Origin: Rhodobiaceae bacterium
GTDB lineage: Bacteria; Pseudomonadota; Alphaproteobacteria; Parvibaculales; Parvibaculaceae
Direction: 5' to 3'
Length of the DNA: 64,000 nucleotides
Assembly (NCBI GenBank): GCA_003330885.1
Contig: CP030277.1
Span: forward strand, 496,001 to 560,000
The notes beneath the pieces are model-generated. The model was not told the origin of the DNA, ran no database searches, and worked only from the letters and a program-made list of their open reading frames with translations. Within the stretch, counting starts at the first letter, position 1, and each line of letters opens with the position of its first letter. Position numbers and translations under genes: made by a program. Positions 55,485-60,772 of this stretch are shown in pieces.

Positions 55485-56888
55485 CTGAGTGACAGTGAAA
55501 AGAGGCAACGTCCGAACGCCAGATTGTTCGACAAGCCGCATCTCCCCTATCTCATCATCGGTCTATTGGTGTTTGCCGGCCTCTATCTCTCGCTGAGCGA
55601 TTGGGGGTTAGACACTTCCCTCGCGGCGATTGAAGAAGAGGGGCGTCTCGTCGTCGTCACGCGGAACTCACCAACCACCTATTATCTTGGACGTGATGGC
55701 ACAGAAGAAGGTTTTGAAGTTGATCTTGTGCACTCCTTCGCGGCAACTCTGGGGCAGGGTGTGGGCGTTGATTTTCTAGTGGTTGATACAGTGCCCGAGA
55801 TTTTTGATGCGATCACAGATGGCAGTGCACATATCGCTGCTGCGGGGCTCACCGTGACGCCAGAGCGCAATGACGCTTACCGCTTCGCACCGTCCTATGA
55901 CCGCGTCCGCCAGATTGTCGTCTGCCGGAAAGATGGGAGTTCTCCCAAAAGTGCTACCGACCTGGTCGGCCGATCAATTGCAGTCACTGCAGGTAGTTCG
56001 CATGTAGCAGCACTGGAGGGCCTGGCGTCTGATGTAGAGGGACTTGAATGGACAGAGCTCGATAGTGGCCCCGAGACATTGATGCTTCAGGTGTGGGAGC
56101 GGGAATATGACTGCACTGTCGCTGACGATCCGGTTTTCAATGTAACGCGGCGCCACTATCCCGAACTGATCAAAGCCTTTTCTCTGACGGACGAGGAGCC
56201 GCTTGCCTGGGTTGTCGCACCCGGCGCCGATGAATTGGCGGATGCGGTGGCTGCCTGGTTTGCCCGAGAGAGCACGGCGAAAGAAATCGACCGTCTGACC
56301 GCGTCGCATTTTGGTTTTTTCCCGAAGTTTGACTATTTGGACATGGTTCGGTTTCGCCGCGATATCAAAGAGGTTTTGCCGGAATACGAACGTGATTTTC
56401 GCACGAGCGCGAGGCGCAACGAACTTCCTTGGATGCTGTTGGCCGCCAAAGCCTACCAGGAGTCCAAGTGGGACCCGGATGCCGTGAGCCCCACCGGCGT
56501 GCGCGGCATCATGATGCTGACACGCTCAACCGCCGAACACGTAGGCGTGTCTGACCGCACTGATGCGCGAGAAAGCATTTGGGGTGGCGCGCGCTACTTC
56601 GCCGAATTGCTCACACGTATCCCCGAAGATGTAGAGGGGGATGACCGCTACTGGTTTGCGCTCGCGGCGTACAATATGGGGCTCGGTCATGTGTATGATG
56701 CGCGGGCTCTAGCCGAACGACGGGGGCTCAACAAAAACATCTGGGTCGATGTGAAGAAGATGCTCAGGTTTCTCTCCGATGAGAAGGTCTATCCGACCTT
56801 GCGCCATGGATACGCGCGCGGCTATGAAGCCCGCCGCCATGTAGAGCAGGTCCGGACCTACTGGCACGTGTTAAAAGAACAACGATAA
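55485..56888 (+). CDS. mltF: Membrane-bound lytic murein transglycosylase F
   Basis: About 467 residues. The start is uncertain: CTG 55485 has a strong AGGAG eight bases upstream, while TTG 55458 and TTG 55524 are other in-frame options; no ATG or GTG fits. A membrane anchor (PYLIIGLLVFAGLYLS) is followed by a periplasmic substrate-binding-like domain (GRLVVVTRNSPTTYYLG, GFEVDLVHSFAATLG) and a C-terminal SLT domain with the catalytic Glu in AKAYQESKWDPDAVSPTGVRG and AAYNMGLGHVYDAR. It cleaves the glycan strands of peptidoglycan. Its last 107 bases are duplicated at 58694-58800, so the present gene end was probably supplied by an integrated element. Confidence 0.92.
   Translation: MSDSEKRQRPNARLFDKPHLPYLIIGLLVFAGLYLSLSDWGLDTSLAAIEEEGRLVVVTRNSPTTYYLGRDGTEEGFEVDLVHSFAATLGQGVGVDFLVVDTVPEIFDAITDGSAHIAAAGLTVTPERNDAYRFAPSYDRVRQIVVCRKDGSSPKSATDLVGRSIAVTAGSSHVAALEGLASDVEGLEWTELDSGPETLMLQVWEREYDCTVADDPVFNVTRRHYPELIKAFSLTDEEPLAWVVAPGADELADAVAAWFARESTAKEIDRLTASHFGFFPKFDYLDMVRFRRDIKEVLPEYERDFRTSARRNELPWMLLAAKAYQESKWDPDAVSPTGVRGIMMLTRSTAEHVGVSDRTDARESIWGGARYFAELLTRIPEDVEGDDRYWFALAAYNMGLGHVYDARALAERRGLNKNIWVDVKKMLRFLSDEKVYPTLRHGYARGYEARRHVEQVRTYWHVLKEQR
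56782..56888 (+). repeat. Left direct repeat (attL-like) forming the current mltF 3' end
   Basis: Identical to 58694-58772 over its first 79 bases, then different at four of the next 28 (56861, 56870, 56873, 56882). All four are third-position synonymous changes and the stop codon is the same. The offset between copies is 1,912 bases. Confidence 0.93.
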
Positions 56889-56906
56889 TTTTCCGGTGAG
56901 AAAATT
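56887..56906. terminator. Bidirectional hairpin at the left edge of the element
   Basis: Perfect seven-base stem AATTTTC / GAAAATT with loop CGGTGA, starting at the mltF stop and touching the stop of the convergent cargo gene. A/T arms on both sides would serve termination in both directions. Confidence 0.65.
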
Positions 56907-58540
56907 CACTTAGGTTGCTCGTCTGTGACTTCTTGGATATCTCCTAGATCATCACACAATTGATCAAATGCACAGCAACAATCAACTTTTACACCGGTTG
57001 CTTCATCAAACTCTCGGAAGGTTTTTTCGAGGTATTTACCGGCCAAATAGAGCCAGTAGGGATCGATTGGATGATCCGCAATGCCAGGGAGTCTGTGAAA
57101 TCTATGAGCGGGATTAGAGCAATATACAGTATTATGAGTGCTTACATGCGCCCAGTTTGAATGCACGGCTGCGCTAAACGGAGCAAAAACAAAATTGTAG
57201 TAATCTAAGCAGCCTGCTTCCTCCGCCATTGCTCTCGAGTTTAGGCCCGACCAGCTGCCAAGATTCACTTCCACCAAGTCCGGCAATCTCTGAGAGTTCA
57301 ACCAGCTTTCCCAATATTCGATGATGTTTTTGTTGTGCTCATTTGTTTCGTTGTCATCTGACTCTGCAACCGACTTTTTTCGGTGGGCGATTTGTAGTTT
57401 TATCGCACCCAAACCGTCTTCTATGAATTTCCCGGCCCTTACCTCTGCGTCTTGTAAGATCCATGCAATTGCAATGTGGACATCAGCCATACCACGCAAA
57501 AGTGTTGGTGCTGTGTGGGAAGTCCACGTCGTTGGAGCGATTGCAAGCTCGGTTGCAATTGTGGTTTGCCTGGCGAGCAAGGCGCCGATGACTTCGTATT
57601 GTTCTATCGAGTTGAGCCGGAAGCCCCACTTGTCTATCCGCGATTCGAGCTCCTGCTGCGCTGCCTTCCGATATCTGAATACAAGCCTTTCAAGTGTATC
57701 AGTTGGTTCCGGTCCTTCTCCTTCTCCTTCTCCTTCTCCTTCTCCTTCTCCTTCTCCTTCTCCTTCTCCTTCTCCTTCTATCGTGGTGTTTTGGATGCAC
57801 GGCCCAAACCCCGCAACTTGTTCCCAAAAATACTCTAACCAAATTAGTTCTGTTTCAGAGCGTTCGCTAAATGGTCCCATATTTAGCGCACCGACTGACG
57901 CTCGAAAACTTGAAGCCGCACCCTCAGATTCTTCAGTGTCGGGATAATTCACGATTGCTTCAAAATCGGACATCTTCTTATCCCAAAGCTCAGTAGGAAA
58001 ATGCAGCTTGCCTTGGGAAATTGTTATGTACTCCATCGTTGCCATAGTGTGCGCCGATATTCGGCTATGCCTATCATATAGTCGGTACAGCAAGTCCGAT
58101 GTTTCTGACATTATTTGGTCAGACAACGACACTTTTTTCTCTCTACAAAGGAAGACCAACGGGTGCTCAGGACAAATTGCACTCAGTGGCGTCAATGCAT
58201 TGGCGATTGCTAACGAGTCATCATTGGCAATGCTTTCGACTAGCTGTCGCTTTCTATTTTCGTCCAGAGTTGAGAATGATGTGATGCGTGCAAACAGTTG
58301 AGTCGGCTCATAGTCGCATTGTGACGCAGCGGTTTTAGTCAACATGGTTGCGAGTTCCACTCCACGTCGTAGTCCGTGCTTCTCTATTATAAGAGAAATC
58401 CAGATAAACTCTGGGACCAACTCTCTCGCCCAAGAATAGAAATGGGGGTCTCCCATCGCCGCAAGTAGTGGCGGGACCAATACCTTACCTTTTCGTTTGT
58501 GGTCCTGGAGCACGGATCGCCGTCGTATCTTATCGCTCAT
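56906..58540 (-). CDS. DUF5677-like protein with Glu-Gly repeat, element cargo
   Basis: 544 residues with AAAGGAG eight bases before the ATG. No signal peptide or membrane helix. Residues 1-250 are helical and unrecognised. An (EG)11 linker follows, encoded by a hexanucleotide repeat. The C-terminal half (~310-530), with LNSRAMAEEAGCLDYYNFV and FSAAVHSNWAHVSTHN, resembles DUF5677, a HEPN-like helical domain found in many uncharacterised mobile-element proteins; a CCCAFDQLCDD cysteine cluster lies near the end. A defence role is plausible for a lone cargo gene but is inference. Codon use is AT-shifted relative to neighbours. Confidence 0.7.
   Translation of the reverse strand: MSDKIRRRSVLQDHKRKGKVLVPPLLAAMGDPHFYSWARELVPEFIWISLIIEKHGLRRGVELATMLTKTAASQCDYEPTQLFARITSFSTLDENRKRQLVESIANDDSLAIANALTPLSAICPEHPLVFLCREKKVSLSDQIMSETSDLLYRLYDRHSRISAHTMATMEYITISQGKLHFPTELWDKKMSDFEAIVNYPDTEESEGAASSFRASVGALNMGPFSERSETELIWLEYFWEQVAGFGPCIQNTTIEGEGEGEGEGEGEGEGEGEGEGPEPTDTLERLVFRYRKAAQQELESRIDKWGFRLNSIEQYEVIGALLARQTTIATELAIAPTTWTSHTAPTLLRGMADVHIAIAWILQDAEVRAGKFIEDGLGAIKLQIAHRKKSVAESDDNETNEHNKNIIEYWESWLNSQRLPDLVEVNLGSWSGLNSRAMAEEAGCLDYYNFVFAPFSAAVHSNWAHVSTHNTVYCSNPAHRFHRLPGIADHPIDPYWLYLAGKYLEKTFREFDEATGVKVDCCCAFDQLCDDLGDIQEVTDEQPK
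57714..57779. repeat. Hexanucleotide microsatellite (CCTTCT)11
   Basis: Eleven uninterrupted copies of CCTTCT on the plus strand, read as Glu-Gly in the minus-strand gene. Because the unit is six bases, gain or loss of units changes the linker length without shifting the frame. Confidence 0.95.
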
Positions 58541-58630
58541 CGCTGTGTCTCCTTTGTTGGGTATGCCAACGCATCCATACCGTAAGATCTATTGGATGAA
58601 ATAGAAGGATTATAATAGACAGAGGGTTCC

Positions 58631-58653
58631 AGGTGACCTAACCCTGAGGTGAC
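58631..58653. repeat. Paired AGGTGAC direct repeats near the right edge of the element
   Basis: AGGTGAC occurs at 58631 and 58647, 16 bases apart, in the 153-base stretch between the cargo gene start and the right repeat. Could be arm-type sites for a recombinase, or operator half-sites for the cargo promoter. Confidence 0.4.
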
Positions 58654-58658
58654 GCATG

Positions 58659-58679
58659 CTCCTTTTTATGAAAATGGAG
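58659..58679. promoter_or_regulatory. 21-bp near-perfect inverted repeat beside the right repeat
   Basis: CTCC-T-TTTT / AAAA-T-GGAG with a three-base centre ATG and one T-T mismatch, ending 14 bases before the right direct repeat. Possible excision/integration protein site or terminator against incoming transcription. Confidence 0.45.
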
Positions 58680-58693
58680 TAATTTCGTTCTTT

Positions 58694-58800
58694 AGAAGGT
58701 CTATCCGACCTTGCGCCATGGATACGCGCGCGGCTATGAAGCCCGCCGCCATGTAGAGCAGGTCCGGACCTATTGGCACGTCTTGAAAGAACAGCGATAA
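58694..58800 (+). repeat. mltF: Right direct repeat (attR-like), displaced original mltF 3' end
   Basis: Encodes the same last 35 residues of MltF and the same stop as 56782-56888, preceded by an in-frame TAG, so it is not expressed as protein on its own. It is interpreted as the pre-insertion gene end, now separated by 1.9 kb from the rest of the gene. Confidence 0.9.
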
Positions 58801-58843
58801 ACTCGACATGTATGAAACGACAGATCCAATTGGAGAATAATCG

Positions 58844-60772
58844 ATGCGGTTACCAGTCATTGTAAGTATGGGCGGGGTGAATGCCGCAGGCCGCACATCG
58901 GGGTATCAAAGCTTTCGTCGGATGGTAATCGATCTTTTGCCTGAAGCCGAACAGCAGCAGACACTCGCTGCATTGGCTGTGATGATGGGGCTCGTCACCG
59001 CAGAAGATGAAACACATTTTGTGCCGACTGGGGAAGACGGACCGCGTGATCCGCTGACGGTCTCCGAAGTGGCGGAACGCTATCGCGAACAGGTGCTAAA
59101 CGGGACTCTGGTCCGACGGGTTGAGGAATCCGTTTTTGATGTCGACGCCCTGCATTGGCAGTCGTCCGCGTCCTTGCGGTCTTCATCAGAGCAACAAGGT
59201 GAGCCTCTCGTTTTCACATTGGCCGCTGATCAGGTTCCCACACGCATTCCAGAAGGCTGGACCGTTGAGGCGAGTGATAAAGACAGTGTCCAGGTAACTG
59301 TCGTCGGGGATCTTGAGGTTAAACTAGAAAACTATCGGGATTTTCCAATCAAGGCAGCAGGGCAATTGCCGACCGGTTTTGAGATTGCTGATCTCTACAA
59401 TTCGCGCTTTCAGCCGCGCGGTCTTCAAATGGCTCTGTTCGGGGCAACAGATGCTCTCCGCGCCATGGGCATTGAGTGGGATACCGTTCTTCAACATATC
59501 GAGCCCGATGAAGTTGGAGTCTATTCCAGCAGTGGCTTTGGTCAGATGGACAAAGAAGGCTATGGGGGCATGCACCAGGCCCGCATGAAGGGCGAGCGTG
59601 TCACGACCAAGTCTCTGGTAATGGGGGTGAACTCCATGCCAACCGACTTCATCAATGCCTATGTGTTGGCCAATGTTGGCATTGCCAGCAGTTCCGTCGC
59701 TGCTTGTGCAACCTTCCTGTCCAATTTACGCCATGCGGTGTCTGACATCAGGTCCGGTAAGATCAGGGTCGCCATGGTGGGAAATAGCGAAGCTCCCATC
59801 GGTCCGGAGCTCATGGATGGGTTTGGGACAATGGGCGCGCTCGCAACCGATGCGAACATGATGAAACTTTACGGGACCGAGGAGGTCGATCACCGCCGTG
59901 CGAGCCGCCCGTTTGGCGAGAATTGCGGATTTACAATCGGCGAGTCGAGCCAATATTTCATCCTTATGGATGACGCACTTGCAATCGAACTGGGCGCGCC
60001 GTGCCTAGGGTCGGTCACTGATGTGTTTGTCGATGCAGACGGCACGAAAAAATCTATCAGTGCTCCTGGCCCGGGAAACCACATCAGCATGGCGAAGGCG
60101 GTGGCTGCTGCATCCGCAGTTGCTGGCAAGGAAGCCGTCCGCGAAAAAAGCTTTGTCCTCGCCCATGGGTCCAGTACGCCGCAAAACCGCGTCTCTGAGT
60201 CTCAGATTTTTGATCAGGTCGCCGAGGCCTTCAACATCACCGACTGGCCAGTGGTCGCGGTCAAGGCTTATCTGGGTCACACCATTGCGCCAGCCAGCGC
60301 CGACCAGCTGGTGGCCGCTCTGGGCTCATTCAAGTATGGCATTCTGCCGGGGATCCCGACAATCGATTCTGTCGCCGATGATGTTTATCAGGATCGCCTC
60401 AAGCTGGGCCCTGAACACCAGCAGACCGCTCCTGAAAACCTTGACGTTGCGATCCTCAATTCAAAAGGCTTCGGCGGCAACAATGCGTCTGCTGTTGTTC
60501 TGTCACCTGATCGCACAGAAGCCATGCTCCGCAAGCGCCATGGGGATGAGGCGATGGCTGCCTACACCAAGAAGCGGGAAGGGAGCCTTGAGGCATCAGC
60601 GCAATATCTAAGCGCTGCCGACCGGGGTGAATATGCCCCCATCTACCGGTTTGGCGGGGACATGATCGAAGAAGCTGACATTGACATCAGCGAGACCCGC
60701 ATATCGATCAAGGGCTTTGCCAATGACATCTCCTTGCCAACTGAAAACCCCTATCAGGACATGACCGACTGA
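58844..60772 (+). CDS. Beta-ketoacyl synthase, FabY-like
   Basis: 642 residues with TTGGAGAA eight bases before ATG 58844. The N-terminus PVIVSMGGVNAAGRTSGYQS and the ~200-residue extension before the thiolase fold are as in Pseudomonas FabY. The Cys-His-His triad is seen in SSVAACATFLSNLRHA, AHGSSTPQNRVSE and KAYLGHTIAPASADQ; a C-terminal GFGGNNAS loop is also present. FabY condenses acetyl-CoA with malonyl-ACP to start fatty acid synthesis; other members make special lipids. It lies immediately after the displaced mltF end, so it was the original downstream neighbour of mltF. Confidence 0.8.
   Translation: MRLPVIVSMGGVNAAGRTSGYQSFRRMVIDLLPEAEQQQTLAALAVMMGLVTAEDETHFVPTGEDGPRDPLTVSEVAERYREQVLNGTLVRRVEESVFDVDALHWQSSASLRSSSEQQGEPLVFTLAADQVPTRIPEGWTVEASDKDSVQVTVVGDLEVKLENYRDFPIKAAGQLPTGFEIADLYNSRFQPRGLQMALFGATDALRAMGIEWDTVLQHIEPDEVGVYSSSGFGQMDKEGYGGMHQARMKGERVTTKSLVMGVNSMPTDFINAYVLANVGIASSSVAACATFLSNLRHAVSDIRSGKIRVAMVGNSEAPIGPELMDGFGTMGALATDANMMKLYGTEEVDHRRASRPFGENCGFTIGESSQYFILMDDALAIELGAPCLGSVTDVFVDADGTKKSISAPGPGNHISMAKAVAAASAVAGKEAVREKSFVLAHGSSTPQNRVSESQIFDQVAEAFNITDWPVVAVKAYLGHTIAPASADQLVAALGSFKYGILPGIPTIDSVADDVYQDRLKLGPEHQQTAPENLDVAILNSKGFGGNNASAVVLSPDRTEAMLRKRHGDEAMAAYTKKREGSLEASAQYLSAADRGEYAPIYRFGGDMIEEADIDISETRISIKGFANDISLPTENPYQDMTD

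What the first reader, a model, noticed from the sequence alone, without database searches (positions are those of the whole stretch)
56782..58800. Integration into mltF with a replacement gene end made of synonymous changes
The last 107 bases of mltF occur twice, 1,912 bases apart. The first 79 bases are identical; the remaining 28 differ at four sites, all third-position synonymous, with the same stop. This is what site-specific insertion into a gene leaves when the element carries its own version of the gene end. The copy at 58694 would be the old end, and the one in mltF the imported one. No recombinase lies within the element. Protein-gene att sites with recoded ends are known for some islands, but a lytic transglycosylase gene as the target, combined with a one-gene, integrase-free element, would be unusual.
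Basis: partly seen in the sequence, partly recalled or inferred. Interest (0 to 1): 0.9.

Follow-up and report, generated by a model that had tools for sequence, protein, structure and literature searches.

The report
Foreign gene inserted behind mltF
A single foreign, defence-like gene has landed at the end of a cell-wall gene, apparently giving that gene a borrowed ending and leaving its old ending stranded two kilobases away; the arrangement looks like a small, stripped-down mobile element of a known kind.

Summary
The last 107 bases of mltF (56782-56888) recur at 58694-58800: 79 identical bases, then four synonymous third-position differences. Three of six other genus genomes have one mltF end followed directly by fabY, and two of these three carry the codons of copy 2. 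Copy 2 is thus most likely the old end, and the last 28 bases of copy 1 the imported one. The 1.8 kb between is foreign: 47% G+C against 57%, one gene, a DUF5677/DitA-like (Aditi-type) protein without a full-length relative in 40 family genomes. No tyrosine recombinase lies in the window. How it arrived is not settled. I favour a site-specifically integrated element that has no integrase now, with an e14/icd-style gene-end swap (0.5). RecA-type capture anchored in the mltF end (0.35) explains the 79+28 mosaic better. No second mltF end was found in 34 other family genomes and no integrase beside mltF in the loci examined. Gene-end replacement and integrase-free cargo remnants are both known, and this genome has another one-gene, integrase-free, repeat-flanked segment at tRNA-Thr. 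A new member of a known kind.

The parts
55488..56888 (+). mltF-like gene (solute-binding domain plus SLT transglycosylase); start codon uncertain, 55488 is only an in-frame position near it
   Evidence: Pfam SLT E 1.4e-20 and SBP_bac_3 E 2.3e-17; tail found in G001-G006
56782..56888 (+). repeat copy 1, the working 3' end of mltF
56861..56888 (+). most likely the imported part of the mltF end (the four synonymous differences lie here)
   Evidence: 24/28 to G006, 23/28 to G001, 26/28 to G004
56889..58693 (.). foreign insert, 47% G+C against 56.6% for the rest of the window
   Evidence: absent at this place in G001, G004, G006; G+C
56906..58540 (-). cargo gene, 544 aa, DUF5677 and DitA-like protein
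   Evidence: Pfam DUF5677 E 8.6e-17; PADLOC DitA E 1e-27
57713..57779 (-). hexanucleotide array (11.2 units) encoding a Glu-Gly run in the cargo protein; absent from the Rhizobium indicum homologue
58541..58693 (.). non-coding arm of the insert next to copy 2; no significantly similar DNA elsewhere in 40 family genomes
   Evidence: best other match E 0.18
58694..58800 (+). repeat copy 2, most likely the native mltF end, now stranded 5' of fabY
   Evidence: 28/28 to G006 and 27/28 to G001 in the last 28 nt, 24/28 to G004
58844..60772 (+). FabY-like ketoacyl synthase gene that follows mltF directly in three relatives
   Evidence: Pfam ketoacyl-synt E 4.4e-12; start 44 nt after the mltF stop in G001, G004, G006

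Best explanation
A foreign one-gene segment was inserted into the 3' end of mltF and supplied its own mltF ending, so the gene stayed intact while the old ending was pushed 1.9 kb away and still sits in front of fabY. Shown: insertion at a site that is empty in three relatives, foreign cargo, and one ending that resembles the two relatives best matching there while the other does not. Inferred: the entry was by site-specific recombination between an element's att site (a copy of the mltF end) and the chromosomal mltF end, as e14 does at icd, and the integrase was deleted afterwards or acted in trans from another element. What remains would be a cargo-only remnant comparable to a cis-mobilizable element. 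The cargo is probably an anti-phage protein of the DitA (Aditi) type, from homology alone.
For: Empty site with a single end and direct junction to fabY in 3 of 6 other genus genomes. Copy 2 matches the endings of G006 and G001. Gene end restored exactly, 34 full codons and the stop. Low G+C insert whose cargo has no full-length relative in 40 family genomes. A second one-gene, integrase-free segment in the same genome is flanked by a copy of a tRNA-Thr 3' end (63-64 nt, 91%, 2,116 nt apart), so cargo-only segments of about 2 kb between att-like repeats occur here. A short inverted repeat AAGGTC-TATCC-GACCTT sits at the 5' edge of the repeat, where an e14-like crossover would lie, but it is weak. 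Published parallels: PMC11148124 and PMC6379469 for e14/icd and PMC7563491 for CIMEs of 1.2-13 kb, passages only.
Against: No tyrosine recombinase in the window. No attP-like third copy in the genome. No other family genome shows a second mltF end (35 of 40 match the tail), and no integrase was recognised downstream of mltF at 33 loci (weak tests, and 5 further family genomes had no locus to examine). No full-length cargo homologue is flanked by comparable repeats (5 loci). 79 identical bases followed by 4 differences in 28 is unexpected if the whole end was imported (p about 0.004, or 0.012 after setting aside a 25-bp core), unless later gene conversion erased differences. The edge inverted repeat is no better than codon shuffles (252 of 300 reach its score) and is broken in G001. 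G004, also an empty site, has an ending nearer to copy 1.
Confidence: 0.5

Rival explanations
1. Homologous capture: DNA from a relative carrying the cargo behind its own mltF end recombined with the recipient's mltF end by RecA, and the other end joined inside mltF (homology-facilitated illegitimate recombination), or a re-circularised fragment entered by a single crossover. Both first-79 segments are then recipient sequence (or repaired to it), and only the last 28 nt of copy 1 come from the donor.
For: Explains the 79 identical + 28 divergent mosaic directly. The last 28 nt of copy 1 match G004 at 26 of 28, as expected of a related donor. The repeat lies in the best conserved stretch between G000 and G001 (180-nt block 96.7% against a mean of 84.1%; 4 of 321 windows as high), a good anchor. 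No recombinase is needed. Precedent: in E. coli conjugation with a one-sided homologous fragment, 56 of 60 Lac- clones gave the PCR product of a duplicated lacZ end, and 14 sequenced had 109-950 bp duplicated (PMC3240628, section 12 read); the authors explain these by single crossover of a re-circularised molecule. A similar capture model is proposed for displaced Vibrio cholerae effector ends (PMC5361080, passages).
Against: Needs a donor in which the cargo already lay beside an mltF end; none was found. True HFIR generally deletes recipient DNA rather than duplicating it (PMC3240628, passages). Microhomology at the second junction cannot be judged without the donor.
Confidence: 0.35
2. Later drift: the four differences in copy 1 arose after the insertion because copy 1 no longer lies in front of fabY, rather than being imported.
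For: All four changes are synonymous. Copy 2 lies in a stretch that is well conserved between G000 and G001, so constraint on copy 1 may have been relaxed. Agreement of three of the four changed positions with G004 is only mildly unexpected (about 0.07 by my own count of variable codons, made without a tool).
Against: Clustering in the last 28 nt (p about 0.004). It does not by itself explain the insertion; no other genome of the genus carries two copies, so the insertion is not ancestral to the genus.
Confidence: 0.1
3. Insertion by the host XerCD system at a dif-like site, as integrase-free Xer-dependent elements do.
For: Such elements exist in Alphaproteobacteria (Jorvik, PMC10589892, passages).
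Against: No dif-like sequence (consensus from recall, up to 3 mismatches) anywhere in the window; the repeat is 107 bp and G+C rich.
Confidence: 0.02

Closest known systems
e14 prophage in icd of Escherichia coli K-12 (PMC11148124 and PMC6379469, passages)
   Same: Insertion into the 3' part of a housekeeping gene; incoming DNA supplies a replacement end (12 nucleotide exchanges over 165 bp, two conservative amino-acid changes), and the old end remains as a stranded partial copy.
   Different: e14 is a prophage with its own integrase gene; here there is one gene, no integrase, a 107-bp repeat and a different target gene.
Cis-mobilizable elements (CIMEs) of streptococci (PMC7563491, passages)
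   Same: Cargo-only segments of 1.2-13 kb between att sites at the 3' end of a gene, without recombination or transfer genes.
   Different: The CIMEs counted in that study sit in tandem with an ICE or IME (its method finds only those); no integrative element sharing the mltF end was found here.
Displaced gene ends from homology-facilitated illegitimate recombination or single crossover (V. cholerae T6SS immunity arrays, PMC5361080 passages; E. coli lacZ-end duplications, PMC3240628 section 12)
   Same: A homologous anchor lets foreign DNA in, the host gene gets a new end and an old or duplicated end is left downstream.
   Different: There the changes affect the protein or were made in the laboratory; here the protein end is unchanged and the donor is unknown.
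Aditi defence system, DitA component (PADLOC PDLC03826)
   Same: The cargo matches DitA, best over its N-terminal half (residues 8-248); the Rhizobium indicum homologue aligns over 5-474 of 486 profile positions.
   Different: No partner gene in the element. Aditi is recalled as a two-gene system (DitA, DitB).

Membership tests
Site-specific integrative element with gene-end replacement (e14/icd type) | Direct repeat of the target gene's 3' end flanking the insert | tested here: met
Site-specific integrative element with gene-end replacement (e14/icd type) | Site empty in relatives, whose single end matches the distal copy | tested here: met
   G001, G004, G006 empty; the distal copy matches G006 28/28 and G001 27/28, but G004 only 24/28
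Site-specific integrative element with gene-end replacement (e14/icd type) | Integrase carried by the element | tested here: not met
   one cargo gene, DUF5677; no PF00589 hit in the window; serine recombinases not searched genome-wide
Site-specific integrative element with gene-end replacement (e14/icd type) | Use of the same target by integrase-bearing elements elsewhere | tested here: not met
   no second mltF end in 34 other family genomes that match the tail; no integrase recognised at 33 loci by weak tests nor by Pfam in 10 frames at 8 loci
Cis-mobilizable element (CIME) | att-like flanks without recombination or transfer genes, carrying cargo | tested here: met
   that the repeats work as att sites is untested
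Cis-mobilizable element (CIME) | Derived by deletion from an ICE or IME, or mobilised by one sharing its att site | not testable with these tools
   no partner element with this mltF end was found
Homology-facilitated illegitimate recombination product | One homologous junction, one non-homologous junction with short or no homology | tested here: inconclusive
   the mosaic repeat fits a homologous junction; the other junction cannot be judged without a donor
Aditi anti-phage system | DitA homologue | tested here: met
   E 1e-27, best stretch residues 8-248
Aditi anti-phage system | Partner gene DitB (recalled) beside it | tested here: not met
   only one gene in the insert; its neighbours are mltF and fabY; no DitB search of the rest of the genome was made
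Aditi anti-phage system | Protection against phages | not testable with these tools
   needs an experiment

The most novel reading that the evidence does not exclude
A minimal non-autonomous defence cassette: one DitA-like gene of about 1.6 kb carried between two copies of a host gene end, moved between strains of this genus by a recombinase supplied in trans or by RecA using the conserved mltF-fabY junction as a landing strip, with the recoded gene end as its only mobility feature.
Probability: 0.12. Interest if true: 0.7.

Novelty: new member of a known kind. Interest (0 to 1): 0.4.

Why it matters
It is a clean case of how a single foreign, possibly anti-phage gene is added to a genome without breaking either neighbour: the repeat keeps the mltF reading frame and leaves the old mltF end in front of fabY. 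It shows that gene-end duplications can mark one-gene acquisitions that integrase-based searches would miss, and it poses a testable question: recombinase in trans, or homologous capture.

Tried and rejected
Assembly duplication: unlikely, since the two copies differ and enclose foreign DNA in one contig. XerCD/dif insertion: no dif-like site. RNA element at the repeat: no Rfam family up to E 1 except a chance snoRNA hit at E 0.13, below its gathering score. Promoter and terminator scan of 56600-58900: no more than shuffles give. Phage or plasmid origin: no phage record with the cargo; three plasmid records, one full-length (Rhizobium indicum, 42.5%) and two partial (Rhodococcus, 29%); by DNA one plasmid record over 6% of the query; no viral contig with the mltF-end pattern; one weak 47-residue cargo match in a viral contig and none with the two-row alignment. 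Cargo homologues in repeat-flanked contexts: none among five full-length loci.

Integrase beside mltF: only the first four frames of each locus were printed; the check was repeated over all 427 frames of at least 60 aa at 33 loci. The motif flagged two frames: one opposite the fabY-like gene in G004, and one of 137 aa at L162 that has no Pfam match. A profile made from five integrases of the same genome found nothing there, nor in the window, but in the four control stretches it found only the three integrases that were in the profile and missed the one in L101, so it is a weak test. Pfam on 10 downstream frames at 8 loci found no integrase (Dus, OmpW, FMO-like, or no family). Class-wide search for the MltF tail: 33 of 385 genomes matched at E up to 0.1, many weakly; besides the window's own only G123 had two matches, both weak and on different contigs, which I did not follow. 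Core-type inverted repeats in the 107 bp: no better than codon shuffles.

Literature: no paper held all of mltF, integration site, genomic island and integrase. Of 7 papers with lytic transglycosylase, attB, integrase and 'integrated into', none named mltF as a target in the listing (titles and abstract starts); passages of one were looked at. PMC10121019, passages only: integrase-only defence islands of unclear mobility in E. coli. PMC2884548, passages only. One search (Aditi names) held 56 papers, 20 listed, none relevant by title; one search gave two, one of them PMC10121019; search 81 (DUF5677 with phage) one unrelated listing; search 82 one listing (PICMIs), not read.
Full report
The repeat. 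The repeat search gives two copies of 107 nt at 56782-56888 and 58694-58800, 1,912 nt apart and 96% identical. They differ at 56861, 56870, 56873 and 56882, all third codon positions, so both encode the same ending (34 full codons) and stop. In the whole genome (one contig, 3,862,255 bases) only these two places match strongly; the next best match has E 0.36. If the four differences were scattered at random over 107 positions, all falling in the last 28 has probability about 0.004.

The surroundings. Upstream is an MltF-like transglycosylase (SLT domain E 1.4e-20, solute-binding domain E 2.3e-17). Between the copies lies one gene of 544 codons on the minus strand. The insert has 47% G+C against 56.6% for the rest of the window. 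The seven PF00589 hits of the genome all lie outside the window. Serine recombinases were not searched.

Relatives. Of six other genomes of the genus that are held, five match the mltF end in DNA, once each, and the sixth, G002, matches in protein, once. In G001, G004 and G006 mltF is followed directly by fabY, whose start lies 44 nt after the stop. In G003 and G005 other genes follow (a DUF4238 protein; a 345-aa protein without Pfam match), and these loci are not simple empty sites. In G002 no fabY match lies within 1.5 kb. In the last 28 nt, matches for copy 2 and copy 1 are: G006 28 and 24, G001 27 and 23, G004 24 and 26, G005 22 and 20, G003 21 and 21.

A conserved stretch. With the flanks joined, the 180 nt that begin at the repeat are 96.7% identical between the window's genome and G001, against a mean of 84.1% (4 of 321 windows as high). 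Against G006 they are 90.6% (15 of 321 as high), between G001 and G006 88.3% (22 of 321), and the three pairs with G004 show little or no excess. This may be a constraint around the start of fabY or an old recombination tract.

The cargo. The protein matches Pfam DUF5677 (E 8.6e-17) and PADLOC's DitA (E 1e-27). It has no full-length relative in 40 family genomes (one other, weak, 77-residue match). Of 385 class genomes 6 matched including its own, the others over short stretches. Homologues of 40-43% identity over nearly the whole length exist in Rhizobium indicum (plasmid), Rhizobium multihospitium, Caulobacter, Novosphingobium and Azorhizobium. In the Caulobacter and Azorhizobium loci the protein is split into two overlapping frames that match the two ends of DitA. 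None of the five loci has comparable flanking repeats. An anti-phage role is inferred from this homology only.

A survey of the same genome. In 60 stretches of 20 kb plus the window (1.264 Mb with 4 kb of overlap, about one third of the genome; six stretches were placed on integrase hits on purpose), six same-strand repeat pairs of 22-400 nt, at least 85% identical and at least 500 nt apart, were found. One is this finding. One is a copy of the 3' end of a tRNA-Thr gene (63-64 nt, 91%), 2,116 nt away, enclosing one long gene, a permease (Pfam Xan_ur_permease E 4.9e-8), and no integrase among the frames listed. One is a pair of tRNA-Met copies enclosing only a weak-scoring integrase, in a stretch chosen for that integrase. 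The other three overlap neither an ORF end nor a tRNA and were not followed. With a looser filter on the first 20 stretches, the window and two stretches of relatives, five further pairs appeared, longer or less identical, most of them long gene duplicates or unexamined. At the relatives' tRNA-Thr loci (six, with 0.4-1.5 kb downstream) nothing between the two copies aligned beyond 28 bases past the tRNA end.

Mechanism. Two readings remain. In the first, an element recombined site-specifically into the mltF end, carried its own version of that end, and has no integrase now. This is the anatomy of e14 in icd (165-bp duplicate with 12 exchanges, PMC11148124, passages; also PMC6379469, passages). 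Cargo-only remnants of 1.2-13 kb are known as CIMEs (PMC7563491, passages). In the second, a relative's DNA was captured by homologous recombination anchored in the mltF end, with an illegitimate or end-joined second junction. Duplicated gene ends of 109-950 bp were obtained in E. coli (56 of 60 clones positive by PCR, 14 sequenced; PMC3240628, section 12; the authors invoke single crossover of a re-circularised molecule), and displaced gene ends in V. cholerae are explained by homology-facilitated illegitimate recombination (PMC5361080, passages). The 79+28 mosaic favours the second reading. The in-genome tRNA-Thr parallel, and the fact that the second reading needs a donor already carrying the cargo beside mltF, favour the first. 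I give 0.5 and 0.35.

Against a general mltF target. Of 40 family genomes 35 match the tail, and only the window's own has two ends. At 33 loci (29 of the family, 4 of other families; 5 further family genomes had no locus) I looked 1.4-1.5 kb downstream: a motif flagged two frames that are probably not integrases, and a home-made profile found none but also missed one true integrase among its controls. Pfam on 10 downstream frames at 8 of these loci found Dus, OmpW and other ordinary families or nothing. The repeat has no third copy in this genome.

Verdict. The kind of event is known. The target gene and the one-gene defence-like cargo make it a tidy new example rather than a new class.

Noticed in passing
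L093:1257-3462 (G000:C1 about 1431257-1433462): tRNA-Thr 3' end repeated 2,116 nt downstream (63-64 nt, 91%), enclosing one long gene (a permease) and no integrase: a second one-gene, repeat-flanked segment in the same genome.
   Followed up: partly
L101:9027-10731 (G000:C1 about 2497027-2498731): Two tRNA-Met copies (81 nt, 88%) enclose nothing but an integrase gene.
   Followed up: partly
L042:10004-11552 and L044:9989-11537: DitA-like cargo homologues in Caulobacter and Azorhizobium are split into two overlapping frames, while the Rhizobium indicum one and the one in the window are single proteins.
   Followed up: partly
57713-57779: In-frame hexanucleotide array of 11.2 perfect units in the cargo gene, giving a Glu-Gly run absent from the Rhizobium indicum homologue.
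   Followed up: no
L012:7585-8433 and L011:8166-9203: In G003 and G005 other genes of unknown function (DUF4238; an unassigned 345-aa protein) follow mltF, so the place behind mltF varies within the genus; neither matches PADLOC.
   Followed up: partly
58694-58873: The mltF end and fabY start form one of the best conserved 180-nt blocks between the window's genome and G001, including synonymous sites; it may hold a regulatory element of fabY.
   Followed up: partly
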